Below, in pieces: positions 30,290 through 60,446 of a stretch of DNA of 64,000 nucleotides. The stretch is from Candidatus Gastranaerophilales bacterium. GTDB taxonomy: Bacteria > Cyanobacteriota > Vampirovibrionia > Gastranaerophilales > Gastranaerophilaceae. The number at the start of each line of letters is the position of its first letter. The stretch's first letter is position 1. Made by a program: the position numbers and the translations under genes. The notes beneath the pieces are model-generated. The model saw nothing but the letters and a program-made list of their open reading frames with translations, was not told the DNA's origin and did not search any database. The DNA is taken from contig CALUPV010000002.1 of the NCBI GenBank assembly GCA_944322745.1, forward strand, positions 248,001 through 312,000. Direction: 5' to 3'.

Positions 30290-31093
30290 ATGAATGCAAA
30301 TTCATTGGGTACAAATGTTGCTGGGATTAATCAGGTTCCAGAGGTAAAAAAAGAACAGGAAAAAGCTGTTAAAAATACCGTTGAAGAACAGTTAATTGAT
30401 TTTTCATTTTCAGGAAATACAAGCTCTGAGATTGGTGATGTGCTTATTTCAACTGAAGATTATTTACCGGATATGGATACCGATGGAGATGGACAAGTTA
30501 TCAAAAATGAAATTATTGAATTCATAAAATCATTATTTCACAAAGATGAAAATGCAGATTTAACAGATAAGTTAGATGCAAATGGCGATGGTGTAATAAC
30601 TCAAGAAGAAGTTGATACATATAACAAAGCAAATCCGAGTGAAGAATTAGATAAAACCGATTTGGAAACAATAGACGAAGTTGTTGAAGAAGAAGAAAAA
30701 GATTATTTACCTGAACTAGATGCTAACGGTGATGGTAAAGTTTCTGAAGATGAAATTCTTGGATTCTTTGAGGAAAAACTTAAGGGATCTGAGGAGGAAG
30801 AAGATATATCAGCTAAAATTGATGCTAACGGTGATGGTATAATTACCCAGGAAGAATTGGATGATTATAACTACAGAACTCAAGATATAAGAGGTGAATT
30901 AGATGCTAATGGTGACGGAATTATAACTCAAGATGAAGTTGATAATTATAATAAAGGAAACGAAGGTAAAGAGGAAGATACTCCATTTACTCCAATTAAC
31001 CCATTTGGTCCTGGTTTCAGCTTGGAAGGTGATGGAAAATTTACTCTTAAACCTCTAGATATATCTTTTAGACAAGAACATATACTATGTTAA
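30290..31093 (+). CDS. Protein with five EF-hand calcium loops
   Basis: 267 acidic residues. Five canonical 12-residue calcium loops are visible: DTDGDGQVIKNE, DANGDGVITQEE, DANGDGKVSEDE, DANGDGIITQEE and DANGDGIITQDE, the repeats ending in VDxYN. All have Asp at 1, 3 or Asn, Asp at 5 and Glu at 12, so calcium binding is very likely. There is no classical signal peptide; the N-terminus is MNANSLGTNVAGINQV. Strong Shine-Dalgarno (GGAGGAAAAGGG). About 230 bases upstream are gene-free and A/T-rich. Role unknown; a secreted or surface calcium-binding role is my inference. Confidence 0.85.
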   Translation: MNANSLGTNVAGINQVPEVKKEQEKAVKNTVEEQLIDFSFSGNTSSEIGDVLISTEDYLPDMDTDGDGQVIKNEIIEFIKSLFHKDENADLTDKLDANGDGVITQEEVDTYNKANPSEELDKTDLETIDEVVEEEEKDYLPELDANGDGKVSEDEILGFFEEKLKGSEEEEDISAKIDANGDGIITQEELDDYNYRTQDIRGELDANGDGIITQDEVDNYNKGNEGKEEDTPFTPINPFGPGFSLEGDGKFTLKPLDISFRQEHILC

Positions 31094-58813: not shown

Positions 58814-58918
58814 TCTCCCTAATCTCCGATAATATTGTATTTATGAGAATTTTATCATATAAACTTTTTTTTTGAATAAAGATTAATAATATATTAATTT
58901 TTTATTTTTATTGTAAAA

Positions 58919-58988
58919 TTTTCTTAATAAAAAGTCTTAAAAAAGCAAAAATCAACATTGATTGATTTAATTGTTGTAGAATTATAAT
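58919..58988 (+). promoter_or_regulatory. Promoter block shared by the tandem paralogues, copy 1
   Basis: TTTTCTTAA..., TCTTAAAA..., GCAAAA, ATTGATTG, then TATAAT at 58983-58988. Nearly the same order recurs at 59688-59751. TTCTTAA and TCTTAA are 13 bases apart in both. Confidence 0.55.
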
Positions 58989-59007
58989 ATGTAGGAAAGG
59001 TAAAGTC

Positions 59008-59628
59008 ATGAGTATTTCTGCAATTAATTGTACACCAATAAAACCTCAAGCATCATTTGGTTCAGCACAAGGTGTAGATGAGGCGCAAAAAGTTTTAGAA
59101 TTATCAAGACAATTAAATGATTCATTTACTTGCAGTAATTGTAGTAATGGGGATTGTGATAATGAAAAAGTTACTAATAAACATCCTCTTCAAACTGCTA
59201 TTTCTGTTTTAGGTGCTTGTGCAACGATGTTTGCATTAGGTAAAGGTGCAGGTAAAGGTGTTGTTGCTTTAGCAAAGAAAGTTCCTGCTTCTGCAAAAGA
59301 AAATATATTGAACACAGGTAAAAAAGCTGTTTCTGCAATTTCTGAACAAGCTGCTAAATTACCAAAGAATGAAAAAGTATCAACAATTTTATCTAACACT
59401 GTTGGTAAAGCATTTAACAGAGCAAAAGATGTTGTAATGAAAAATCCTGAAAAATCATTTACAACTGCAGCAGGTGTTTTAGCTGCAACAACTTTAGTAC
59501 CTTCTATTGCAACTGCTGATGGTAATAAAGATGGTGTTGCCGATATTGCTCAAAATAATATTAATGCATATGCAAGTGCTTTCAAAAAAGCTGAAATATT
59601 TTCAGATATGATTAATGCATTATCTTAA
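59008..59628 (+). CDS. Unknown protein, SFG-tag family, copy 1
   Basis: 206 residues. The N-terminus MSISAINCTPIKPQASFG resembles that of the next gene. Features in order: SFG at residues 17-19; a cysteine-rich turn (CSNCSNGDC) near residue 43; a hydrophobic, glycine-rich segment (AISVLGACATMFALGKGAGKG); a basic helical region; a second hydrophobic segment (AAGVLAATTLVPSIATA); then a calcium-loop-like DGNKDGVADIAQNN. No classical signal peptide. It might insert in a membrane or be exported by an unusual route; I recognise no family. Confidence 0.75.
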   Translation: MSISAINCTPIKPQASFGSAQGVDEAQKVLELSRQLNDSFTCSNCSNGDCDNEKVTNKHPLQTAISVLGACATMFALGKGAGKGVVALAKKVPASAKENILNTGKKAVSAISEQAAKLPKNEKVSTILSNTVGKAFNRAKDVVMKNPEKSFTTAAGVLAATTLVPSIATADGNKDGVADIAQNNINAYASAFKKAEIFSDMINALS

Positions 59629-59646
59629 TATTTCTAGAAATAATAT

Positions 59647-59677
59647 AAAAAAGAGAACTGTTTAAGTTCTCTTTTTT
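59647..59677 (+). terminator. Terminator between the tandem paralogues
   Basis: AAAAAAGAGAACT (59647-59659) and AGTTCTCTTTTTT (59665-59677). Perfect 13-base arms, so the two paralogues are separately transcribed. Confidence 0.9.
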
Positions 59678-59687
59678 ATTTGTTAAT

Positions 59688-59751
59688 TTTTCTTAACAAT
59701 ACATCTAAAATAGGCAAAATTAAATATTGATTGCATTATATGAATTATAAA
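59688..59751 (+). promoter_or_regulatory. Promoter block shared by the tandem paralogues, copy 2
   Basis: TTTTCTTAA, TCTAAAAT, GCAAAA, TATTGATTG, then GAATTATAAA with TATAAA at 59746-59751. The distance from TTGATT to the -10 is 13 bases here and 19 in copy 1. Confidence 0.5.
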
Positions 59752-59775
59752 AGTCTCTTTTAGAAAGGTAAGAAT

Positions 59776-60390
59776 ATGAATATTTCTGCATCACAATCAA
59801 TTCCTGTTAAAGAACGTACTTCATTTGGTAAAGAATATCAAGTAGAAGATGTCGAACATGTAATGCAATTGACAAGAGAATTGAATGATAGTTTTCAAAG
59901 AGCTGAAGAGCCTGAGCATAAATCAGTCGCTGGTATTTTTGCTTCAGTTGCTGGTGCAATATTAACTATGTTTATTTTAGGTAAATGTGCTGCTTCAAAG
60001 ATAATGACAGCATTCCCAGGTATAACAACTAAATTAGGCTCAGCAATCAGAAAAGGTGCTAATGTTGTAAGAGATTATTCAGATGATGTTGCCAAAGGTG
60101 CTAAGTTACAAAAAGGTGGGAAATATACACAATTTGTTGGAGACAAGGTATCTAAAGCAGAAAGTTTCTTAAGAAAAAATTATATAAAATTAAGAGATAA
60201 ATCAGGGGCGGAAAATCTTATAACTAATGCTGCCGGTTTGACTGCAGTTGCGACTATTGCACCTGAAGTTATTTCGGTAGATGGTAATAATGATGGTGTT
60301 TCTGATATTGCTCAAAAAAATGTTAATGCATATAAAAATGCATTGAGAAATGTCGGTATTATTTCTGAAATTGTAGAAGCACTTGCATAA
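59776..60390 (+). CDS. Unknown protein, SFG-tag family, copy 2
   Basis: 204 residues, paralogous to 59008. N-terminus MNISASQSIPVKERTSFGK; a hydrophobic glycine-rich segment (GIFASVAGAILTMFILGKC) at the same place; a second hydrophobic segment (AAGLTAVATIAPEVISV); then DGNNDGVSDIAQKNVNAYKN. It lacks the cysteine-rich turn of copy 1. Identity is highest in the last ~45 residues and the SFG tag. Shine-Dalgarno AGAAAGG. A terminator follows. Function unknown. Confidence 0.75.
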   Translation: MNISASQSIPVKERTSFGKEYQVEDVEHVMQLTRELNDSFQRAEEPEHKSVAGIFASVAGAILTMFILGKCAASKIMTAFPGITTKLGSAIRKGANVVRDYSDDVAKGAKLQKGGKYTQFVGDKVSKAESFLRKNYIKLRDKSGAENLITNAAGLTAVATIAPEVISVDGNNDGVSDIAQKNVNAYKNALRNVGIISEIVEALA

Positions 60391-60416: not shown

Positions 60417-60446
60417 AAAAACTGACTATGTTAATAGCCAGTTTTT
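60417..60446. terminator. Hairpin terminator with one mismatch
   Basis: AAAAACTG-A-CTAT with ATAG-C-CAGTTTTT; one mismatch in the stem, T6 at the end. It lies between the second paralogue and convergent lysR-type gene. Confidence 0.7.

What the first reader, a model, noticed from the sequence alone, without database searches (positions are those of the whole stretch)
59008..60390. Tandem paralogues of an unclassified family: SFG tag, two hydrophobic segments, DGNxDGVxDIAQ loop
Two adjacent genes of 206 and 204 residues share MxISA...P(I/V)K...(A/T)SFG, a glycine-rich hydrophobic segment (TMF(A/I)LGK), a second (AAG...AT(L/I)(V/A)P) and a calcium-loop-like end DGN(K/N)DGV(A/S)DIAQ(N/K)N(I/V)NAY. 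No known domain fits, and neither has a classical signal peptide. Separate strong terminators and own promoters suggest independent, possibly high expression. The combination looks like a lineage-specific surface, export or membrane-active protein family.
Basis: partly seen in the sequence, partly recalled or inferred. Interest (0 to 1): 0.66.

Follow-up and report, generated by a model that had tools for sequence, protein, structure and literature searches.

The report
Putatively exported twin proteins, gut bacteria
Two neighbouring genes in an uncultured gut bacterium make related small proteins found only in its order; they share a near-frozen start sequence and a calcium-loop-like motif, and may be exported through a tail-less flagellum-type secretion machine that nearly all sampled relatives carry.

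Summary
Window 59008-59628 and 59776-60390 are tandem paralogues (37% identical) of a protein family found only in the order Gastranaerophilales, without Pfam, NCBIfam, PDB or phage match. All 35 sampled genomes of the genus carry 1-3 copies. Across 49 diverged members only the starting Met, Phe17 of the N-terminal leader (MxISAxNC[TS]PIKPxSF(K)G) and a D-x-[DN]-x-[DN]-G-[VI]-x-D loop stay nearly fixed. The leader evolves about three times more slowly at protein level than the rest. It is not unique to the family: unrelated orphan and enzyme-like proteins of the order begin with a similar ...SF(x)G leader. That motif is enriched 3.9-fold at protein starts (p=5e-7, tuning set included), and none of the 26 carriers has a Sec-like start. 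Following this led to a larger fact: FliP, FlhA and FlhB were found in nearly every sampled genome of the order (145/146, 98/98, 40/40), including the flagellin-less window genome, which also has rod genes: a filament-less flagellar-type type III secretion apparatus. Best explanation (inferred, about 0.33): the pair are membrane-active substrates of that apparatus, addressed by the leader. Family, leader and apparatus genes are shown; export is not.

The parts
58905..59006 (+). conserved upstream block of gene A (TTGTAAAxTTTTxTTAA ... GCAAA ... ATTGATTGxTTTAATTGxxGTAGAAT ... AAGGT), candidate promoter/operator and ribosome-binding site
   Evidence: nhmmer hit E=3.7e-17 with a model of 24 upstream regions (gene A's own among them); no other strong hit besides gene B in 464 kb of own genome
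59008..59628 (+). gene A, 206 aa
59008..59061 (+). gene A N-terminal leader MSISAINCTPIKPQASFG
   Evidence: codons 2-17: 21% nonsynonymous pairwise differences against roughly 47-89% in later 20-codon blocks; F17 in 46 of 49 members
59185..59241 (+). gene A hydrophobic segment 1 (residues 60-78, mean hydropathy 1.39)
59458..59514 (+). gene A hydrophobic segment 2 (residues 151-169, mean hydropathy 1.37)
59518..59553 (+). gene A calcium-type loop DGNKDGVADIAQ
   Evidence: loop pattern in 48 of 49 family members
59645..59679 (.). bidirectional terminator-like hairpin between the genes
59675..59772 (+). conserved upstream block of gene B
   Evidence: nhmmer hit E=4.2e-8 with the same upstream model; gene B's upstream was not in the model
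59776..60390 (+). gene B, 204 aa, tandem paralogue
59776..59829 (+). gene B N-terminal leader MNISASQSIPVKERTSFG
59926..59982 (+). gene B hydrophobic segment 1 (residues 51-69, mean hydropathy 2.18)
60217..60273 (+). gene B hydrophobic segment 2 (residues 148-166, mean hydropathy 1.44)
60280..60315 (+). gene B calcium-type loop DGNNDGVSDIAQ
60417..60446 (.). terminator-like hairpin after gene B, shared with the convergent LysR-type gene
   Evidence: reported on the - strand only

Best explanation
The two genes encode small, mostly helical, membrane-active proteins that leave the cell without Sec. The conserved N-terminal leader ending in SF(x)G is an export signal, also used by other proteins of this order, and is read by a filament-less, flagellar-type type III secretion apparatus that the order carries. 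Outside, where calcium is plentiful, the C-terminal D-x-[DN]-x-[DN]-G-[VI]-x-D loop binds calcium, and the two hydrophobic helices with the Lys-rich amphipathic region between them associate with a membrane or envelope. Shown: the family, its restriction to the order, the frozen leader, the loop, similar leaders on unrelated non-Sec proteins, the export genes, the absence of flagellin in the sampled genus members. Inferred: that the leader is an export signal, that this apparatus reads it, calcium binding, and membrane activity.
For: Family: 125 of 383 genomes at E<=1e-3; all 35 sampled genomes of the genus; no convincing hit outside the order. Leader and loop are the only near-fixed features in 49 members; selection on the leader acts on protein, with 31% synonymous and 21% nonsynonymous differences. 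Unrelated proteins carry the motif: 26/1946 protein starts against 37/10847 later windows, 3.9x, p=5e-7; 0/26 have a Sec-like hydrophobic start against 378/1948 of all genes; control cyanobacteria 0/222. Carriers include a 5'-nucleotidase and an alpha-amylase-domain protein, and an M16 peptidase has SFRG near its start, classes often exported elsewhere; most others have no Pfam match. Export apparatus: FliP 145/146, FlhA 98/98, FlhB 40/40; flagellin 54/146 and none in this genus; own operons with SctQ/FliN-like, FliO, FliQ, FliR, rod FlgB/C/F/G-like, FliE, FliF, FlhA, FliI. Tagged genes lie near the FliP operon in two genomes.
Against: No secretion, localisation or calcium data exist. The held-out leader test gave 3.6x but p=0.02, missing the pre-set p<0.01; the p=5e-7 set includes the sequences on which the pattern was tuned. 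The leader is on only about 1% of proteins. The pair is not next to the export genes. The apparatus is found throughout the order but the family is not (22 of 52 genera at E<=1e-3). Known type III signals are usually degenerate (own knowledge). Both AlphaFold models are unusable (mean pLDDT 35 and 36). Mean hydropathy of the segments in gene A (about 1.4) is low for transmembrane helices.
Confidence: 0.33

Rival explanations
1. They are intracellular, inner-membrane-associated structural or stress proteins. The SF(x)G leader is a short binding motif that docks proteins to a cytosolic partner or the membrane and has nothing to do with export.
For: Long-standing chromosomal location next to secA and folP or rel/spoT in several genera; no secretion gene nearby; weak hydrophobic segments and Lys-rich amphipathic helices; the only PDB profile hits are generic helical bundles and apolipoproteins.
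Against: Similar leaders also start a 5'-nucleotidase and an alpha-amylase-domain protein and an M16 peptidase has SFRG near its start, types often found outside the cytoplasm; the loop resembles calcium loops usually found outside cells; the leader was never seen with a Sec-like start.
Confidence: 0.3
2. The leader is an export signal, but for another route (an uncharacterised transporter, vesicles, or the type IV pilus/secretin machinery), not the flagellar-type apparatus.
For: Same leader evidence as above; no direct link of leader to the FliP/FlhA apparatus; a short secretin-N-like gene sits between fliQ and fliR (the resemblance is recalled, Pfam gave no match).
Against: The one export apparatus tested here is near-universal in the order and has no filament in this genus to build; tagged genes lie near its operon in two genomes. 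Other secretion systems were not searched for.
Confidence: 0.2
3. They are the translocator (membrane pore) proteins of the apparatus, the counterpart of the two-hydrophobic-segment translocators of injectisomes.
For: Two hydrophobic segments, no Sec signal, tandem copies, and presence in every sampled genome of the genus.
Against: No significant match to a Pfam family in any of 49 members; the segments start about 90-97 residues apart, not a close hairpin; no convincing member in many genera that do have the apparatus.
Confidence: 0.08

Closest known systems
Thrombospondin type 3 / bacterial DxDxDGxxD calcium repeats (PF02412)
   Same: Loop spacing D-x-[DN]-x-[DN]-G-[VI]-x-D with Q or E at position 12
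   Different: A single copy, no repeat array; Pfam gives only one member at E=0.022
Substrates and effectors of type III secretion systems
   Same: No Sec signal, conserved N-terminal leader with a fast-evolving body, and an export apparatus in the genome
   Different: A recognisable short motif shared by unrelated proteins is unusual; export not shown; no chaperone identified
Two-segment translocators of injectisomes (SctE type)
   Same: Two hydrophobic segments in a helical protein, no Sec signal
   Different: About 205 aa, segments far apart, no Pfam match
Chlamydial inclusion membrane (Inc) proteins
   Same: N-terminal export region plus two hydrophobic segments (resemblance recalled, not tested by sequence search)
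   Different: Inc segments form a close bilobed pair; here they start about 90 residues apart, with a calcium-type loop after the second
Partial flagellar gene set of the gut melainabacterium MEL.A1 (Di Rienzi et al. 2013, PMC3787301)
   Same: Flagellar genes without filament, cap, hook-filament junction, L and P rings
   Different: Read there as ongoing genome reduction; here its core is found across the order, and flagellated genera carry a second, longer FliP, which points to a retained, separate apparatus

Membership tests
Thrombospondin type 3 repeat (PF02412) | Pfam profile match and tandem repeats of the loop | tested here: not met
   One member of 49 at E=0.022, none significant; single loop
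EF-hand | Helix-loop-helix with hydrophobic residue at loop position 8 and Glu at 12; Pfam match | tested here: not met
   Hydrophobic residue at position 7, Asp at 9, Gln or Glu at 12; no EF-hand hit for the pair or among the families listed for 49 members
Sec-exported protein | Hydrophobic N-terminal signal peptide | tested here: not met
   The two strongest hydrophobic stretches start after residue 47 in all 49 members; N-terminus polar. No dedicated signal-peptide predictor was available
Type III secretion substrate | Encoded in a genome with a type III export apparatus | tested here: met
   FliP, FlhA, FlhB, FliQ, FliR, FliF and FliI hits in own genome
Type III secretion substrate | N-terminal export signal without Sec features | tested here: inconclusive
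   Frozen leader, similar ones on unrelated non-Sec proteins; whether it directs export is unknown
Type III secretion substrate | Secreted in an apparatus-dependent way | not testable with these tools
   Needs an experiment
Injectisome translocators | Profile match to a translocator family | tested here: not met
   No significant Pfam match for 49 members; none in NCBIfam for the pair
Chlamydial Inc proteins | Two hydrophobic segments in close bilobed arrangement | tested here: not met
   Segments start 91 (gene A) and 97 (gene B) residues apart
Flagellum (own genus) | Flagellin | tested here: not met
   PF00669 absent in own genome and in the 6 other genus members sampled, present in 54 of 146 genomes of the order

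The most novel reading that the evidence does not exclude
The order Gastranaerophilales carries a dedicated filament-less flagellar-type secretion apparatus, kept beside the true flagellum in motile genera, which exports proteins marked by a conserved N-terminal SF(x)G leader. Such a short, readable signal shared by unrelated substrates would be unusual for type III secretion. The pair in this window are among its most conserved, calcium-loop-bearing, membrane-active substrates.
Probability: 0.27. Interest if true: 0.85.

Novelty: new variant of a known kind. Interest (0 to 1): 0.6.

Why it matters
If right, gut-dwelling non-photosynthetic relatives of cyanobacteria, known largely from MAGs, have a conserved protein export machine whose substrates can be listed from sequence by their first residues. 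That would make open questions testable: what these bacteria send out into the animal gut, and whether a flagellum stripped of its filament serves as a secretion system. If only the family and leader are right, it is still a new order-specific protein family and a new N-terminal sorting motif.

Tried and rejected
One DNA pattern had a wrong spacing and missed even the pair. An exact pattern for MxNP[IVM]xFG gave 6 hits against 0 in the reversed control in 146 genomes: in the right direction but rare, so the leader is not a single fixed string. Looser first patterns showed little or no enrichment. Weak profile hits in four photosynthetic cyanobacteria (E 1.5e-4 to 8e-4) were judged chance from score alone. 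Sigma-70 scan: nothing above chance. Phages: no match. Literature in the held library: no report found of this leader or of type III secretion in Gastranaerophilales. Considered and dropped: bacteriocin or toxin pair (no immunity-like gene among the flanking open reading frames) and phage origin.

Full report
What is there. The window lies in a 2.04 Mb MAG. Its nearest named matches are Gastranaerophilales MAGs, including a Candidatus Avigastranaerophilus record. Two adjacent + strand genes, 59008-59628 (206 aa) and 59776-60390 (204 aa), sit between secA (- strand) and a convergent LysR-type gene. They are 37% identical. A terminator-like hairpin separates them. Neither matches Pfam or NCBIfam; no Pfam family matches the 49-member family significantly, and PDB hits are generic helical bundles and apolipoproteins only.

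The family. A two-row, then a 12-row, then a 49-row profile found homologues in the order only: 125 of 383 genomes at E<=1e-3. A phylum-wide sample added only four photosynthetic cyanobacteria at E 1.5e-4 to 8e-4, which I treat as noise; hits of similar strength inside the order are equally unsure. All 35 sampled genomes of the genus have one to three copies. The tandem is old: a tree groups A with A and B with B across two genus lineages. Chromosomal position is often kept: secA on one side and folP on the other in several genus members and nearly so in a second genus; rel/spoT and folP in two more.

Anatomy. In 49 members, down to 18-25% identical to gene A, the near-invariant positions are Met1, Phe17, Asp171, Gly176 and Asp179. 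Phe17 belongs to a leader of consensus MxISAxNC[TS]PIKPxSF(K)G. Codons 2-17 differ nonsynonymously in 21% of pairwise comparisons and synonymously in 31%, while later blocks are 47-89% nonsynonymous, so the protein sequence of the leader is under selection, not the DNA. The three Asp/Gly positions belong to a loop D-x-[DN]-x-[DN]-G-[VI]-x-D, present in 48 of 49. Two hydrophobic segments lie between, starting 91-97 residues apart in the window pair. Both AlphaFold runs failed in confidence but agree on helices and an unstructured leader.

Regulation. The ~100 bases before each gene share a block with TTGTAAAxTTTTxTTAA, GCAAA and ATTGATTGxTTTAATTGxxGTAGAAT. A profile of 24 upstream regions finds gene A's region (which was in the model) and gene B's (which was not, E=4.2e-8) and nothing else convincing in 464 kb of the genome. 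This suggests a dedicated promoter, though which factor binds is unknown.

The leader is shared. Reading sampled stretches of related genomes showed unrelated proteins beginning with similar leaders: MTNPVSFGSTYK, MINPISFGSTYK, MSNISFTGN, MKINQISFKG, MINNSNISFRG. With a pattern fixed beforehand, new stretches gave 6/357 protein starts against 9/1921 later windows: 3.6-fold, p=0.02, short of the p<0.01 I had set. Over all 2.07 Mb, tuning set included, it is 26/1946 against 37/10847, 3.9-fold, p=5e-7; none of the 26 has a Sec-like hydrophobic start, against 378 of 1948 genes overall. A small cyanobacterial control gave 0/222. Some hits in the list look like chance (for example a glycosyltransferase-like L165:511). 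Carriers with known domains are a 5'-nucleotidase and an alpha-amylase-domain protein; an M16 peptidase with SFRG at its start was met beside a family member and is not in the counted set, nor is the amylase, whose leader just misses the counting pattern. Most other carriers scanned are orphans, some with features recalled from effector families (a GNC...H...D arrangement in L098:1226, HETGH in L103:6695); these last are impressions, not tests.

The apparatus. Looking for a route, I searched FliP and found it in 145 of 146 genomes, FlhA in 98 of 98 and FlhB in 40 of 40. Genomes with two FliP copies generally have one of about 250-280 aa and one of about 214-240 aa; sampled members of this genus have only one, of the shorter kind. 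Flagellin is in 54 of 146, and in none of the seven genus members sampled. The window genome holds, at C6:15998-19935, a SctQ/FliN-like gene, fliO, fliP, fliQ, a short unnamed gene and fliR, and at C2:149108-159453 FlgF/G-like, FlgG-like, FlgB, FlgC, a lytic transglycosylase, FliE, FliF, two unnamed genes, FlhA and FliI. Di Rienzi et al. (PMC3787301) saw a filament-less flagellar set in MEL.A1 and read it as genome reduction. Its retention across the order argues instead for a function. Hook and ring genes were not searched here.

How it probably works. I put together: a leader under strong protein-level selection, with similar leaders on unrelated proteins that lack Sec signals; a retained export apparatus with no filament to build; a loop of calcium-binding type; and hydrophobic segments around Lys-rich helices. 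The economical reading is that A and B are exported by this apparatus and act at a membrane outside the cytoplasm, with calcium folding the C-terminus after export. Each link from leader to apparatus, and from loop to calcium, is inferred. The main rival is a cytosolic docking motif with proteins that stay inside.

Verdict. The more interesting result is outside the coordinates: an order-wide filament-less export apparatus and a candidate leader for its substrates.

Noticed in passing
G000:C6:15998-19935 (L174/L175) and G000:C2:149108-159453 (L025): Filament-less flagellar-type export and rod gene set in a genome without flagellin; FliP, FlhA and FlhB found in nearly all sampled genomes of the order.
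   Followed up: partly
order-wide, e.g. G073:C3:317649-318671: Besides full-length FlhA, many listed genomes have a second ORF of about 490-500 aa that matches only the C-terminal half of the FlhA profile (positions ~300-655). Function unknown.
   Followed up: no
window 30290-31093 (+): 267-aa protein with several EF-hand-type loops (DANGDGVIT and similar), a tag-like FSFSGN at about residue 38 and no signal peptide.
   Followed up: no
L025:1953-5882 (G000:C2): Homologue-like ORF of a tagged alpha-amylase-domain protein (L094:5561), judged by eye; its own leader (PAFTG) appears only if translation starts upstream at a non-ATG codon, so leader counts may be low estimates.
   Followed up: partly
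L066:4641-4901 and L072:4544-4834: Small ORFs of 86-96 aa, with a hydrophobic C-terminal segment, directly downstream of the family gene in two genomes of another genus; possible partners.
   Followed up: no
L088:14504, L132:7329, L166:17112: Apparently a second SF(x)G-leader family (about 345-395 aa, several hydrophobic segments, no Pfam match) in three genera, grouped by eye.
   Followed up: no
L175:8658-9812 and L125:17933-18346: Leader-bearing orphan genes close to the fliP operon in two genera (NISFG, VISFG, PINFNG).
   Followed up: partly
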